In this document: positions 2,172-62,838 of the stretch, piece after piece
How the letters are laid out: each line of letters opens with the position of its first letter
Numbering within the stretch: position 1 is the stretch's first letter
IMG/VR virus record: IMGVR_UViG_3300031730_000003
Span: 1 to 64,000 of that record
Source of the DNA: a virus
Length of the DNA: 64,000 nucleotides
Strand: one strand, 5' to 3'
Program-made: the position numbers and the translations under genes
The notes under the pieces: model-generated
What the model was told of the DNA's origin: nothing
Seen by the model: only the letters and a program-made list of their open reading frames with translations
Database searches by the model: none

Positions 2172-5100
2172 TCAGGGTCCAAAAAAGCGGATCGCGTTTC
2201 CCTTGTTGATGTTCTTCTCGCGGGTGCGCAAGGCGCGGAGGTCGTCGCGGCGCTGGAAGGCCTCGCCGCGCTCCGGGTGGCTGATGAAGCCGGGTGCCGG
2301 CGTGATGCCCCAGAAGGCCAGGGCCTGCTCAAGCGGCGATGCTCCCTGCGCGCCGAGGCGCTGCGAGCCGCGGTAGCTGAAGGGCAGCACCTGGCCGGCG
2401 AGGAAATTGCCATAGGCCGTCGCAGCGTTCTCGTCTGGCGCCTTGATGATGCCGCCGTAGAAGTCGCGGTTGGTGCGAAGCTGGTTCAGCGTCGACAGCA
2501 GCGGGTGGGTCTTGTTGACGGCGGTCTGGAAGGGCGCATGGACCCACTCCAGCACGTCCTTGGCGTAGGTGGGCAACGACAGGCGCCCACCTTTCCCGTC
2601 AGGCGGGAAGAAATAGTCCATCTTGTCCTGCGGCGCCGCGCCGGTATTGAGGTAGGTGATCAGTGCTCCATAGGGCGCCACGACCAGTGGCAGTGCCAGG
2701 GCATAGGACATGCGCCGCGTCCATTCCGGCTTGCCGAGGGTAGCGACCTCTTTGGCCATGCGCGCCGTGTCCACCGCCGCGCCGCCGATCTCGCGCACGG
2801 TGCCGACGTTCCAGCCGACGGAGCGCGTCGCGATGAAGGCGGTGTCCTTGAGCGTCTTGCTCCAGAACAGGTTGTCGTAGACCAACTGGCCGAGCCGGTT
2901 GTCCACGCTGTCCCATGCCTTGATGAGCGCCTTGGCGGTCTCCTCTGGCGTGGCGTGCGGATTCTGCCGGGAGAAGTCCTCCGCCATGCCGTAGAAGACG
3001 CCGAGCTTGGCCCGCGGCACGAGCCAGCCCATCAGCGGCTCAGTCGTGGTCTGCAGCACGCGACCGACGACTCGGAAGGGAAGCGCCAGCAGCGGCGTCT
3101 CCTTGGCCATGGCCTTGATCTCTCGGCCGAAGTCGCCCGGGTTGGTGAACAGGCGCTTGAAGCCGTCCATGTCCCGGATGAAGGCGCCACGCTGGTCGGC
3201 GTTGTGGAAGCCGTCCATCTGGATCCGGCCGCCGGCGGTGTTCAGCGCCTGCACCATCTTGCGCGCCTCGGGGGGCAACATCGCTGGATCACCGAGATAC
3301 CAGTTCCGCAGCTTGGCGCCCTTGATGATCGTGGGGACGGTGCCGGTGACGAGGTTGATGCCTGGCACCATGCCGATGGCAGCGTGCCCGAGGCCGGCGG
3401 CGGCTTCCTTGATGTTGCCCTTCGCCGCGCCGGCCACGGCCTGGTCGATGCCGCGCGCAGCGGCGCTGATCATGGTGTCAGCCGTGACGAAGGTGGCGTG
3501 GAAGCCGGAGAGGCCAAGCTGCGCCATGTTCAGCGCGTTGCCGACCTGCCGGATGGTGTCGTAGATCGGGCTGCGGCCGGCGAGCCCCTGCGAGACGTAG
3601 TTGTTGAAGACCCGGGCGACCGGCTCGGGGGCGTAGTAGGCGCCGGGGGCTGCCGGGCCCTTGGCCGTGGGCAGGCGCGGCTGGAACAGCCGGTCTTCCA
3701 GCTTCTCCCAGCCGGCCGACTTAGCGGCGCTTTCCTGGCTGTGTGGCACCCAGGCCGCCATGTGGCTCTGCTTGATGGCCTCGCCCAGCGTGGTGCCGTG
3801 GTAGAACTTCTGCATCTCAAGCAGTTTCAGGAACTGCATGCGCACCGGATTCGTGGTCACCGGGATGAGCCCGGCATCCATGGCTTCCTTCAGCGTGGCG
3901 AAGGTGCGCTGCTTCAGGAAAGCACCGGAGCCTGAAATGGGCGCCTTGGCCTGCATGGCGGCGTACTGCTGGCGCAGCTTGTCGCGGAGTTCCGGCGGCG
4001 TCAGCGGCGCCTCGCCGCGGCTCCACTCGTCATAGTTGCTGTATGCCCGACCCATGTAGTCGGCATTGGCTTCCCGCAGAAGCGGCCGGTCGATCAGGCG
4101 GCCAAGCTGCTGGATTTTCGCGGTCCAGCCGTCGAGTTCCTTGCGGGTGCCGTCGACGACGCGCTGCAACTCTGGATTGGCCTGGGGCTGGCGCGTCTCG
4201 GCCTTGTGCCAGACGTCAAGCTGCTCGGCCTCTGGTAGCCGGTCGATCTCGCGCACCAGCTTGTCGAGCGCATGGCCGGTCTTGGCGGCCGACTGCGCGC
4301 GCTCGGCGGCGCTGCGGCGGACCACGGCTTCCATGGCGTCGGCACCGGGCCGGGACGTCGGGCTGAGCCAGCGCTGGAGGTTGTCGACCACGTCCTTGGC
4401 GAGGTTCTTGCGCTCGGTCGCCAGGGGAAGCCGGCCCTGGTTGCGGGCGGCGAACAGCGCGTCGTCCTCGGGTTCCCGGGCGGACTGCTTCGCCGGCTCC
4501 TCGGGGGCCGCGCGGGGTCCTTCCGGCACGCCTTCCTGCCCCTCGCGTTCGCCATGCAGCAAAGACCGGAACACGTCGTCGCTGGTGCGGAAGCCCTGAC
4601 CACGCAGGGCCTGACCGACGCCGACCACGAAGTTGCGCATGTTGCGGGCCGCGCGCAGCACCGCCGGCGGCTCCTTCATGCCGTAGGACAGGGCTTCCTC
4701 GGCCAGCCGGGCGACTGCTTCCTCGCGCAGGATGGCGCGATCGGCCTTGGGATAGGCCTTCTTCAGCGCCGCCTCGTTCTCCGGCTTCTTCAGCCAGCGC
4801 TCGGCGGCGAGGTTCAGTGCCTTGTGCTCGGCCGGCGTCAGCAGCCCAAGCTTTGGGTCGACCAGGGCGTGGATCACCTCGTGGAACAGCTTCAGCGGCA
4901 CTTCGCCGGGCGGCGTGTCCATGGCGAATTCGATGAGGCCCCTGCGGTAGGAGGCGTCCGCGCCGCCATCCAGCAGCCGGTCGACCAGCTTCAGCCCGAC
5001 GCGCGGCGGCAGCCCGACGTAGCGCATGAAGGCCTGCATCGTGCGGTAGAGCAGTTCCCGCGCCTGCTTCACTTCCTCTGGCTGGCCCTTGGACTGCGCC

Positions 5101-59045: not shown

Positions 59046-59083
59046 CCCCAACCCGTTGCGCGTGGTGGTGTGTGGAGGGGCGG

Positions 59084-59596
59084 ATGGGTGAGCGTCGCTT
59101 CCGCATCTCGTGGATACCGCTTCGTGAGGCGAACCGCTTTATCGGGCTGCACCATCGCCATCACGTGCCGAGCCAAGGCGGAATCGTCGCCCTGGGGTGC
59201 TGGGAAGGACAGCGCTTGGTTGGCGTCGGCGTGATCGGGCGCCCGGTGTCGCGGAAGCTCCAGGAACAAGGGCATTGCGAGATCGTGCGCAGCTGCGTGC
59301 TGGATGACATTCTTCCGTCCGGGCAGCATGCGGCTTGCGCGGCGTCCGGGCTGTTAGGGCGTCTGCGCCGCCTGGCTGGCTCTCTCGGGTTCGTCCACGT
59401 CGTCACTTACACGCTTCCAGAAGAAAGCGGCGCAAGCCTGACGGCATCGGGTTGGAAGCAAGACGACGCGCTGTTCGGCGGCGGAGATTGGAGCGTGTCG
59501 TCCAGACCTCGCGCAGAATCCCGTCACCCAACAGCGCCTAAGCGCCGGTGGTGGCGCGAAACAGGCGCGCAACCGGAGTTGAAGATAGATGCCTGA
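59084..59596 (+). CDS. XF1762-like phage protein (GNAT-like)
   Basis: 170 residues from ATG 59084 with GGAGGGG upstream. IPLREANRFIGLHHRHHVPS, then VGVGVIGRPVSRKLQEQGHC and VHVVTYTLPEESGASLTASG match the phage XF1762-type family, a GNAT-like fold of unknown substrate. C-terminal tail basic. Confidence 0.7.
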   Translation: MGERRFRISWIPLREANRFIGLHHRHHVPSQGGIVALGCWEGQRLVGVGVIGRPVSRKLQEQGHCEIVRSCVLDDILPSGQHAACAASGLLGRLRRLAGSLGFVHVVTYTLPEESGASLTASGWKQDDALFGGGDWSVSSRPRAESRHPTAPKRRWWRETGAQPELKIDA

Positions 59597-59789: not shown

Positions 59790-60134
59790 CTATCTTCCGC
59801 GCCCCAATGCTGGCAGCACGACCGCCGTTGCCATCGACACCGCCGCCGTAATCCCAAGCCATACCACCTGAAGGACATACAGAGGCTCGTAGATCGTGAC
59901 GATGTCCAGCACGTGCGACCCGGCGCAGCACAGGATGAACGCCACGAACAGCCATGTGCCGGCGCGACTGCTACCGCCACGCCAGAGCCCGAACGCCAGT
60001 TGCAGCGGGATCAGCACATAGGCCACCGCGATTACGCCGTTTGCGATGACGGTAGGGGTGACGAGATTGGCTTGCCACAACAGGCAGAAACCATGGGGCG
60101 TCAGGCCAGACGGCGTGAACAAAGCCTCTAGCAT
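59790..60134 (-). CDS. Three-helix membrane protein like the ethylene-receptor sensor domain
   Basis: 114 residues with three membrane segments: about 25-50 (VIANGVIAVAYVLIPLQLAF), 57-80 (TWLFVAFILCCAGSHVLDIV) and 84-110 (LYVLQVVWLGITAAVSMATA). These align with the N-terminal domain of ETR1-type receptors and bacterial sensor kinases: Tyr39, Ile42, Pro43, Cys70 and His74 correspond to ETR1 Tyr32, Ile35, Pro36, Cys65 and His69, the last two being copper ligands. The Asp25 position is Asn32. FTPSGLTPHGFCLLW also fits sensor-kinase starts. No kinase follows. In the lysis region it may serve as a holin or membrane sensor. Confidence 0.65.
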   Translation of the reverse strand: MLEALFTPSGLTPHGFCLLWQANLVTPTVIANGVIAVAYVLIPLQLAFGLWRGGSSRAGTWLFVAFILCCAGSHVLDIVTIYEPLYVLQVVWLGITAAVSMATAVVLPALGRGR

Positions 60135-60514
60135 CGGTCGTCATCCCGGAGTTCGACGTTATAGGCGCCCATGACCAAGCCGAGACCGTCGCCCGTGATG
60201 GTGATCCAGCGCAACTCGCGGGTATCGGTGATGGACCTCCGGGGGCGCAGGCAATATCGGGTGACCTTGACCACGTTTTGGCCAGGCCGCACCTCATCCA
60301 GCCGCCGGCCTGCCCGCGCCCCTGAGTCAGTCGGGATCGCCTCGTAGAACGCCGAGGACTGGACGTAGGGCACGTATGGCGTCGGCAGGAAGACGCGCTC
60401 CACCGTGGTCACGTAGCCCGTGCCACCGATCGCCAGCGCCGAGCCCGCGAACATGGCGATCCGGCGCACCAGCGGGCTCAAAAAAGGGGGCTTGGCGGTC
60501 GCTACGGAGGGCAT
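60128..60514 (-). CDS. Membrane-anchored hypothetical protein
   Basis: 128 residues. One membrane helix (IAMFAGSALAIGGTGYV), then an exported domain with VVKVTRYCLRPRRSITDTRE and ITITGDGLGLVMGAYNVELR. It overlaps the next gene by seven bases. Possibly a spanin-like or holin-associated protein. Confidence 0.55.
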   Translation of the reverse strand: MPSVATAKPPFLSPLVRRIAMFAGSALAIGGTGYVTTVERVFLPTPYVPYVQSSAFYEAIPTDSGARAGRRLDEVRPGQNVVKVTRYCLRPRRSITDTRELRWITITGDGLGLVMGAYNVELRDDDRC

Positions 60515-60541: not shown

Positions 60542-61072
60542 CTAGACGAACAACCCTTGCGCCTGCCAGTACATGGACAGGAACCCCTCCAGCGCCTCCG
60601 CATCCGGTTCCGCGGCAGCCGAACCCCGCACCCACTCCTTTTGGTAGGCGCGGGCCAGGTCGGTTGGGGTGCGGATGGTCATCGTCACCACCAGATGCGT
60701 CGTGCCGCCAACGAACAGCCCGCGCGACTGCACGCGGTTGCAGAGGAACGCGAGGCAGTCACCAGCGTCCGCGAACGCCACGAACCGCCGCGTCTTCCCC
60801 GTGCCGTTCTCCGGCAGCACGACGGTCCCGGCGAACAGGTGTGTCAGTTCAGGCGGCCAGCGCGAGCCATCGGCCTGCACCCCGGCATAGTTGTTGTTGA
60901 CGCCGGAGCGCCCGTTGCTGCTCTCGTTCCTGAAGATGATGTAGGCGGTGCGCTGAACCTCTGCCAGAGCGTCCACCGCCCGCAGCGCGTCGATCGCGTC
61001 GGGCATGGCGACGGTGGTGCGGGCAAACAGTACCTCCGGCAATTCAGGGTAGGCGTTCGGAACGGCCGACAC
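60542..61072 (-). CDS. Probable lysozyme-like endolysin (family by motif)
   Basis: 176 residues. AYIIFRNESSNGRSGVNNNY, with a possible catalytic Glu, then GVQADGSRWPPELTHLFAGT and RRFVAFADAGDCLAFLCNRV, and LARAYQKEWVRG at the end. This is a recurring phage protein placed with lysis genes and consistent with a glucosaminidase/lysozyme-like fold. Enzymatic activity is inferred from context. Confidence 0.5.
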   Translation of the reverse strand: MSAVPNAYPELPEVLFARTTVAMPDAIDALRAVDALAEVQRTAYIIFRNESSNGRSGVNNNYAGVQADGSRWPPELTHLFAGTVVLPENGTGKTRRFVAFADAGDCLAFLCNRVQSRGLFVGGTTHLVVTMTIRTPTDLARAYQKEWVRGSAAAEPDAEALEGFLSMYWQAQGLFV

Positions 61073-61540: not shown

Positions 61541-61846
61541 CTACTTCTTCACCGGGATCAGCGTCACCAGCCGCGCCACCAGCGCCGACGCATCGGCAGC
61601 CGAGAGCTTGCCATCGGACATGGATTTCACGCCGTCGTAGGCGACCTGGTCGGCCGTCTTGATCTGCGCCGACACCGACGCGTCGCTGCACAGGCGCCCC
61701 GTAGGCTGCGGGCACAGCGGCAGTTGCACATAGATGGTCGCCGCCGTCTCGGCAGCCGTCAGGGCAACCTTGGTGGCGTTGACGGCGGTGGGGTCGGCAC
61801 CGCACGCAGCGAGCAGCAGCGCGCCGGCGAGGAGGAGGGGTTTCAT
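61541..61846 (-). CDS. Phage lipoprotein
   Basis: 101 residues from ATG 61846. Signal peptide with lipobox LAAC (MKPLLLAGALLLAACGADPT), so lipidation is expected at Cys15. The mature part is helical and small. A phage lipoprotein here is typical of an outer spanin or of a superinfection-exclusion protein. Overlaps the holin-like gene by four bases. Confidence 0.65.
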   Translation of the reverse strand: MKPLLLAGALLLAACGADPTAVNATKVALTAAETAATIYVQLPLCPQPTGRLCSDASVSAQIKTADQVAYDGVKSMSDGKLSAADASALVARLVTLIPVKK

Positions 61847-62229
61847 GGGGTGGGTCCTTGGGTTGTGGAGGTCGGCAAGATCGAGGCGATCGGCGCCTTG
61901 GTCACATAGCGCATGACATACGACCCGGCCCATGCCCCGACGAGCCCGGCGATGCCCGCCACGAGGTTGATCGTGTCGGGGGTCAGGCAGTTCGCCGCCA
62001 CGACAGTCACCGAGCATGCGAGCCCGTACTTTGTGGCCAGCAGCCCGATCAGGCCAGCGAGCGCGGTGCCCCACGGCGTCTTGCTGTAGGCGAGAGGTTT
62101 CCCGATCAGTTGCTCGGCCAGAGCAGGATCGACCGCCTTCAGGCCCGTGATGAGGCTCTGAGCGTCCTGGGCGACTGCGATGGCTGCGGTGGCGGCAGGT
62201 GTCGTCAGGTTGGCTGGGGTGTCGGTCAT
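61843..62229 (-). CDS. Holin-like membrane protein
   Basis: 128 residues from ATG 62229. Two membrane segments (TALAGLIGLLATKYGLACSV; INLVAGIAGLVGAWAGSYVM) after an Ala-rich N-terminal helix; the tail is short and polar. Size and topology fit class II-like holins of alphaproteobacterial phages. Confidence 0.55.
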   Translation of the reverse strand: MTDTPANLTTPAATAAIAVAQDAQSLITGLKAVDPALAEQLIGKPLAYSKTPWGTALAGLIGLLATKYGLACSVTVVAANCLTPDTINLVAGIAGLVGAWAGSYVMRYVTKAPIASILPTSTTQGPTP

Positions 62230-62245
62230 GGCGGCTCCTACGGGC

Positions 62246-62434
62246 TCACAGAAGGGCGCACAGGGCAGGGGCGCCATACCAGGCCGCTACCCACCCGACT
62301 GCCGCCAGAGCCAGCCCTACGAGGCTCCAGCGGTTCGGACGCCACATCAGCGGCGGCTCATCCAGGCCGATACCATCGCGCTCCGCGAAGCCAGCCATCT
62401 CCTCCGCGGCGTAGACTGGAATCGGCTCGGCCAT
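62246..62434 (-). CDS. Single-span membrane protein
   Basis: 62 residues from ATG 62434. Acidic N-terminus (VYAAEEMAGFAERDGIG) and a C-terminal membrane helix (WSLVGLALAAVGWVAAWYG). Possibly an accessory holin or antiholin. Confidence 0.55.
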   Translation of the reverse strand: MAEPIPVYAAEEMAGFAERDGIGLDEPPLMWRPNRWSLVGLALAAVGWVAAWYGAPALCALL

Positions 62435-62442
62435 TTCGTGCC

Positions 62443-62838
62443 TCACTTTCCAAGCAGCCTGATGACTGTCCACTTGAGCGCGTCTGGCACGAAAGGTGCA
62501 AGCACAGACCACGCCGTGATGCCCAGGATCGCCAGCACGCTCGCCCATTTGGTCGCGCCGGCGTGCCAGGCCGAGAACTCCTGCACCGGGCTCTTGAGGC
62601 TTTCCACGGTCCGGCGCAGTTCGGACAGCCCCGTCTCCAGGCGCTCGCGTTGCATATCCGATGCGTCCGCTCGCGCGCTGAGACGACGATCCATGTTTTC
62701 GAGGGTGTCCCGGAGGTCCCGCACGTCCTCGTCCCGCTGCTTGGCGCTCACTATCAGCGCCTCCATGGAGCCTACCAGCCGACCGACGTCCTGCCGGAGC
62801 GCCCCAAGCTGGGCGAGAGTTTCTCTGGCCTCGCTCAT
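62443..62838 (-). CDS. Coiled-coil membrane protein (inner-spanin-like)
   Basis: 131 residues. Residues 1-95 form a coiled coil (TLAQLGALRQDVGRLVGSME; LRDTLENMDRRLSARADASD), followed by one membrane helix (WASVLAILGITAWSVLAPFV) near the C-terminus. Spanins usually have N-terminal anchors, so topology is reversed; such proteins occur in phage lysis regions of Rhizobiales and relatives. Gap 62839-62958 shows nothing clear. Confidence 0.55.
   Translation of the reverse strand: MSEARETLAQLGALRQDVGRLVGSMEALIVSAKQRDEDVRDLRDTLENMDRRLSARADASDMQRERLETGLSELRRTVESLKSPVQEFSAWHAGATKWASVLAILGITAWSVLAPFVPDALKWTVIRLLGK

What the first reader, a model, noticed from the sequence alone, without database searches (positions are those of the whole stretch)
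59790..60134. Phage-encoded ethylene-receptor-like three-helix domain without kinase
Seen: three membrane helices with Tyr39, Ile42, Pro43, Cys70 and His74 matching ETR1 Tyr32, Ile35, Pro36, Cys65 and His69 in order and spacing; only ETR1 Asp25 is Asn. Inference: a copper-binding-type sensor module detached from its kinase and placed next to lysis genes, perhaps reused as a holin or membrane signal decoy.
Basis: partly seen in the sequence, partly recalled or inferred. Interest (0 to 1): 0.75.

Follow-up and report, generated by a model that had tools for sequence, protein, structure and literature searches.

The report
Phage solo ethylene-receptor-type membrane domain
A bacterial virus carries, as a complete small gene, only the three-helix membrane sensing domain of ethylene-receptor-type kinases, and more than a dozen other virus lineages do too, often beside cell-lysis genes, which suggests that viruses have repeatedly recruited this sensor domain for a job that needs no kinase.

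Summary
Window 59790-60134 (minus strand, 114 aa) is a complete gene that belongs to Pfam ETR1_N (65.8 bits, E 4e-18). It keeps the Tyr/Ile/Pro and Cys/His residues, has Asn for Asp25, and has no kinase; neighbouring genes leave no room for one. A profile-confirmed scan of IMG/VR found about 15 further phage lineages with the same solo domain (110-160 aa), plus Maribacter phages Molly/Colly and a few phage kinase or STAS fusions. PHROGs and the paper library do not hold this family. Across solo phage copies the Cys/His/Tyr/Ile site and an N-terminal Cys are invariant. The helix1-helix3 Asp25-Lys91 pair, tied to receptor output in ETR1, is usually lost, yet it is intact in kinase-fused and kinase-operon versions, including phage kinases. 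Topology is N-out/C-in with three helices, as in class I holins. Recognisable peptidoglycan hydrolases lie close by in six lineages; in the window itself this is not proven. Best reading (about 0.45): a late membrane effector or lysis regulator built from the sensor domain, possibly with metal at its site. A decoy for host kinases is the main rival. Ethylene sensing by the window protein is unlikely, because Asp25 is lost.

The parts
59790..60134 (-). Solo ETR1_N protein, 114 aa, complete gene
   Evidence: Pfam PF25487 E 4.2e-18; custom profile 110 bits; AF2 pLDDT 90.9
59985..60071 (-). TM helix 1 (residues 22-50); contains Asn32 (Asp25 place), Tyr39, Ile42, Pro43
   Evidence: AF2 secondary structure, alignment
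59889..59966 (-). TM helix 2 (residues 57-82); contains Ile67, Cys70 (59925-59927) and His74 (59913-59915), the Cu(I)-ligand places of ETR1
   Evidence: AF2, alignment
59802..59879 (-). TM helix 3 (residues 86-111); Leu93 at the place of ETR1 Lys91
   Evidence: AF2, alignment
60128..60514 (-). Upstream gene overlapping the ETR1_N start by 7 bp (ATGCTAG): 128 aa, one TM helix then a likely periplasmic part; same architecture as the partner gene in the L183/L198/L207/L208/L209/L199 phages, homology not shown
   Evidence: no family hits
60542..61072 (-). 176 aa protein; by eye resembles glucosaminidase-type muralytic enzymes (ES..G...NNN..G..AdG.rW), unconfirmed
   Evidence: No significant hit in Pfam, PHROGs, PDB, NCBIfam, phages or 385 alphaproteobacterial genomes
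61541..61846 (-). Lipoprotein-like small protein (signal helix then AAC), similar in kind to lipoproteins near the solo ETR1_N genes of L010, L161 and L177
   Evidence: Sequence inspection; weak phrog_23484 E 0.0029
61843..62277 (-). Holin-like small membrane protein
   Evidence: Hydropathy by inspection; no family hit
62443..62838 (-). Coiled-coil protein with C-terminal TM helix
   Evidence: Inspection; sub-threshold LysB/Rz-type and coiled-coil hits only
59072..59596 (+). Context only: Mom-like DNA modification protein, convergent with the ETR1_N operon
   Evidence: PF25680 E 1.3e-6; phrog_1384 E 4.7e-24

Best explanation
The gene encodes a free-standing ETR1_N domain, a member of a recurrent phage family that has kept the membrane ligand site and dropped the kinase. 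SHOWN by computation: domain membership, completeness, three TM helices, invariant Cys/His/Tyr/Ile site, loss of the Asp25-Lys91 pair in most kinase-less copies, purifying selection in two lineages, and recognised lysis enzymes nearby in six lineages. INFERRED: it is inserted in the inner membrane late in infection, N-terminus out and C-terminus in, pairs as a dimer as ETR1 does, and acts on the membrane or on neighbouring small membrane proteins as a holin, antiholin or lysis-timing regulator. The Cys/His site probably holds Cu(I) or another soft ligand as a structural or trigger site. Because Asp25 is Asn, high-affinity ethylene binding is not expected in the window protein.
For: Membership. 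Family in many phages. No overlap with PHROGs. Residues not imposed by the search pattern (C17, Y39, I42, S100) are invariant in 16/16 solo phage rows, while D25/K91 are lost: lineage-level Fisher p 2.5e-5 and 3e-7 against cellular kinases. The pair stays D-K in phage kinase fusions and in cellular split receptors. Positive-inside count K+R: N 10, loop1 42, loop2 5, C 62. Lysis neighbours: GH108 endolysin plus Rz-like gene (L207/L209), M15 peptidase (L161), phage lysozyme (L206), lysozyme2 (L199, L192), amidase (Molly; called its potential endolysin in PMC8776804). omega 0.08-0.26.
Against: In the window no endolysin or holin was confirmed by profile. Several lineages sit elsewhere (L184 between terminase and portal; L163/L180 after tail genes; L173, L169, L189 without a recognised lysis gene). 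Some cassettes carry another holin candidate (L209). The lysis link is rough: 6 of 15 lineages against about 1.5 expected if 10% of genes lie that near (binomial 0.002), falling to 0.056 if the two lysozyme2 cases are tail enzymes. Foldseek does not match known holins.
Confidence: 0.45

Rival explanations
1. Decoy or dominant-negative: the phage domain forms mixed dimers with host ETR1_N kinases and blocks or biases host signalling.
For: ETR1 receptors are dimers (PMC12744750); the domain can stand apart from its kinase in cellular operons (L249, L250, L068); solo phage copies keep the core of the domain.
Against: Only 28 of 385 sampled alphaproteobacterial genomes hold any ETR1_N; repeated placement near lysis or tail genes; partner genes of their own in some phages; loss of D-K though the split cellular inputs L249 and L250 keep it.
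Confidence: 0.2
2. A copper, redox or gas responsive membrane sensor that works through a phage-encoded partner rather than a kinase (for example the one-TM beta-sandwich protein encoded just upstream) to time lysis or exclude superinfection.
For: Conserved metal-ligand places; upstream partner overlapping the ETR1_N start in L207/L208/L183/L198/L199; partner model is TM plus beta-sandwich; the first 130 residues of AzoEtr1 alone bind ethylene (PMC11819568).
Against: Asp25 loss predicted to abolish ethylene binding; no metal data; the window's partner is not homologous by sequence; the partner's fold match is generic and low confidence.
Confidence: 0.25
3. A recently captured kinase fragment without function.
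For: Single, short, at the end of a late operon.
Against: Same compact form in more than a dozen lineages, no kinase remnant, omega 0.08-0.26 in two lineages, site invariant.
Confidence: 0.04

Closest known systems
ETR1_N sensor domains (Pfam PF25487) of plant ETR1, SynEtr1, AzoEtr1 and bacterial hybrid kinases
   Same: Same family by profile, three TM helices, Tyr/Ile/Pro, Cys/His, N-terminal Cys
   Different: No kinase or receiver attached or adjacent; Asp25 and Lys91 replaced by Asn and Leu; shorter first loop
Class I holins (lambda S105 type; from general knowledge)
   Same: Size, three TM helices, N-out/C-in, late or lysis position in several relatives
   Different: No sequence or fold match; conserved Cys/His/Tyr site that holins lack
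Maribacter phage Molly gp65 (QQO97550.1, 'hypothetical protein')
   Same: Phage-borne ETR1_N without kinase, beside an amidase; Asn at the Asp25 place; best viral structural match (a 289 aa entry of the same length)
   Different: 289 aa with an extra C-terminal domain; Asp at the Lys91 place; unrelated myovirus
Cellular split ETR1_N plus kinase operons (L249, L250, L068)
   Same: Solo ETR1_N open frame of 138-182 aa
   Different: Directly followed or flanked by sensor kinases; D-K pair intact in L249/L250

Membership tests
ETR1_N domain (PF25487) | Profile score above gathering cut-off | tested here: met
   65.8 bits vs 27; relatives 23 of 24 above
ETR1_N domain (PF25487) | Three TM helices, N-out/C-in | tested here: met
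   AF2, positive-inside count
Functional ethylene receptor | Cys65 and His69 copper ligands, Tyr32, Ile35, Pro36, Ile62 | tested here: met
   All six identical in P0001
Functional ethylene receptor | Asp25 (mutation abolishes ethylene binding in AtETR1, PMC11819568) | tested here: not met
   Asn32 in P0001
Functional ethylene receptor | Histidine kinase or other output module, fused or in the operon | tested here: not met
   ORFs around 59-62 kb, family scans
Functional ethylene receptor | Saturable ethylene binding / Cu(I) binding | not testable with these tools
   Needs purified protein
Class I holin | Three TM helices, N-out/C-in, about 100 aa | tested here: met
Class I holin | Homology or fold match to known holin families | tested here: not met
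Class I holin | Endolysin gene adjacent | tested here: inconclusive
   Window unconfirmed; met in six related lineages
Class I holin | Forms lethal membrane holes at a set time | not testable with these tools
   Needs expression assay

The most novel reading that the evidence does not exclude
Phages have repeatedly turned the ethylene-receptor sensor domain into a metal- or small-ligand-gated lysis switch: a holin or antiholin whose opening is set by a Cys/His Cu(I)-type site rather than by concentration alone.
Probability: 0.15. Interest if true: 0.9.

Novelty: new variant of a known kind. Interest (0 to 1): 0.62.

Why it matters
ETR1_N is known as a sensor input to kinases. A broad phage family that keeps the ligand site but drops the kinase and the Asp-Lys output pair separates ligand binding from output in nature, gives minimal 110-130 aa versions of a domain with no solved structure found in the PDB copy searched, and points to an undescribed class of late phage membrane proteins. 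It makes 'what else can this copper/ethylene site be used for' directly testable.

Tried and rejected
Single-sequence and narrow-alignment scans of IMG/VR found only three extra phage copies. One pattern scan was one base short and is void (loci L095-L156 are chance). Alignment A5 was too diverse to search with. PDB sequence and fold searches found no ETR1_N structure. Homology of the window's upstream gene to the conserved partner of the L183-type phages was tested and not shown. The idea that 60542-61072 is the endolysin found no profile support. A single origin or a donor kinase could not be resolved by tree. Asn at Asp25 as a phage hallmark was rejected: solo phage copies have N, D, H or G. 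PADLOC: no hits.

Full report
OBSERVATION. The named stretch encodes, on the minus strand, a 114-residue protein from ATG to TGA. Its start overlaps the stop of the upstream gene (ATGCTAG), which suggests translational coupling, and its stop lies about 16 bp from the end of a convergent plus-strand frame, so it is a whole gene and not a cut kinase. It scores 65.8 bits (E 4.2e-18) to Pfam PF25487 ETR1_N and 110 bits to a profile built here from 80 cellular ETR1_N domains. AlphaFold2 with 61 relatives gives three long helices at pLDDT 90.9. The contig is a 67.1 kb virus record with terminase, portal, SU10-type adaptor, primase/helicase, Erf and YqaJ genes; its terminase is nearest to phages of alphaproteobacteria and uncultured Caudoviricetes, 39% at best.

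THE FAMILY. PHROGs has no family for it. In 50,697 phage records, tblastn with four different solo or cellular domains finds only Maribacter phages Molly and Colly (a fifth query found none); Molly gp65 is an ETR1_N protein by Pfam (E 1.5e-16) encoded just before an amidase gene. A DNA pattern for LF..FI..CG..H scanned over IMG/VR, checked with the cellular profile, gave about 25 contigs; 23 of 24 records tested exceed the Pfam cut-off, each with one copy. Most are solo domains of 110-160 aa. Exceptions are kinase fusions (L172/L214/L221, L213, L174), one STAS fusion (L009; Pfam STAS E 7e-13) and a broken copy (L178). Counting close relatives once, about 15 solo lineages are seen, from GC 0.33 to 0.69. 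The terminase profiles tried match only a minority of these records, so viral status of the rest rests on the IMG/VR call and on tail or lysis genes seen nearby; L165 (349 kb) and L174 (279 kb) have terminase matches but could hold host DNA.

CELLULAR CONTROL. In 80 cellular loci all but two frames are 330 aa or longer or run off the contig. The two short ones are a kinase frame interrupted by TAG (L019) and a 182 aa solo frame between two PAS/kinase-type genes (L068). In 385 alphaproteobacterial genomes 28 have ETR1_N; of the short frames read, two (138 and 140 aa) are followed directly by a kinase and receivers (L249, L250), one ends at a stop in frame (L252) and one is a divergent orphan (L251). 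So kinase-less ETR1_N is rare in cells and the rule in phages.

WHAT IS KEPT AND WHAT IS LOST. In 16 solo phage rows Cys65, His69, Tyr32, Ile35, Ile62, an N-terminal Cys and a helix-3 Ser are invariant. Cys65/His69/Ile62 were imposed by the search pattern for most rows; Tyr32, Ile35, the N-terminal Cys and the Ser were not, and the window, Molly and L009 were found independently of that pattern. Asp25 is N, D, H or G, and Lys91 is L, H, R, V, T, G, D, C or K. In cellular domains they are D (43/45) and K (42/45). By lineage, Fisher p is 2.5e-5 for Asp25 and 3e-7 for Lys91 (an earlier hand-entered count is superseded). Phage kinase fusions and cellular split receptors keep D-K. Three unrelated solo proteins (L173, L189, Molly) have N at 25 and D at 91, an exchange of the acidic side between helices 1 and 3. 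Published work summarised in PMC11819568 states that mutating Cys65 or Asp25 abolishes ethylene binding in AtETR1, that Asp25 is modelled to bond Lys91, which is involved in output, and that the first 130 residues of AzoEtr1 suffice to bind ethylene; PMC12643061 places the copper site at Asp25, Cys65, His69. Inference: phages kept a soft-ligand site and shed the output coupling. Within two lineages omega is 0.08-0.26.

MECHANISM. K+R counts (N-terminus 10, loop1 42, loop2 5, C-terminus 62 over 16 proteins) set the N-terminus outside and the C-terminus inside, as in ETR1 and in class I holins (general knowledge). Neighbours: GH108 endolysin, Rz-like gene, partner, then ETR1_N in L207/L209-type phages; M15 peptidase next to it in L161, a lysozyme (with one in-frame stop) two genes on in L206, lysozyme2 in L199 and L192; amidase in Molly, named its potential endolysin by the authors (PMC8776804). 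Elsewhere it lies after tail genes (L163, L180, L177) or between terminase and portal (L184/L196). The window has lipoprotein-like, holin-like and coiled-coil membrane genes nearby by inspection, but no recognised endolysin. A rough count, 6 of 15 lineages where about 10% would be expected, gives p 0.002, or 0.056 without the two lysozyme2 cases. A second gene, one TM helix plus a beta-sandwich (model pLDDT 70.6; generic fold matches), overlaps the ETR1_N start in L207, L208, L183, L198 and L199; the window's upstream gene has that architecture but no detectable homology. The best-supported reading is a late membrane effector or lysis regulator; a partner-coupled metal sensor and a decoy for host kinases remain open.

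KNOWN OR NEW. The domain is known; a kinase-less phage family of it was not found in Pfam annotation, PHROGs, PADLOC or the held papers. It is shown to be neither an ethylene receptor (Asp25 and output missing) nor a holin (no homology); it is filed only as an ETR1_N domain protein. Structural comparison with viral proteins returns a 289-residue entry (same length as Molly gp65, 33% identity) as the one confident match and no known holin.

Noticed in passing
L172 5214-6656(-), L214 2414-3856(-), L221 1839-3281(-): Three IMG/VR contigs of about 50-60 kb carry the same 481 aa ETR1_N-PAS-histidine kinase among phage-like genes, that is, whole ethylene-receptor-type kinases on phage contigs.
   Followed up: partly
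L009 5890-6948(+): Phage protein joining ETR1_N, a coiled coil and a STAS domain, near a terminase gene: a possible stressosome-type mimic.
   Followed up: partly
L249 4923-5336, L250 4929-5348, L068 2965-3513: Bacterial split receptors: solo ETR1_N gene directly followed or flanked by sensor kinase genes.
   Followed up: partly
L206 about 3150-3530(-): Phage lysozyme gene interrupted by one in-frame stop codon with homology continuing after it; stop recoding or a sequence error.
   Followed up: no
window 59072-59596(+): Mom-like DNA modification gene (phrog_1384 E 4.7e-24) convergent with the ETR1_N operon.
   Followed up: partly
L009 5309-5869(-) and 7672-9555(-): The same short peptide string (EITPVLSPGQT) appears in two unrelated genes, as if a short DNA insert were repeated in this contig.
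   Followed up: no
L173 1436-1885(-), L189 1506-1871(+), L002 7932-8801(+): Asn25/Asp91 exchange: the acidic residue moves from helix 1 to helix 3 in three unrelated solo phage proteins.
   Followed up: partly
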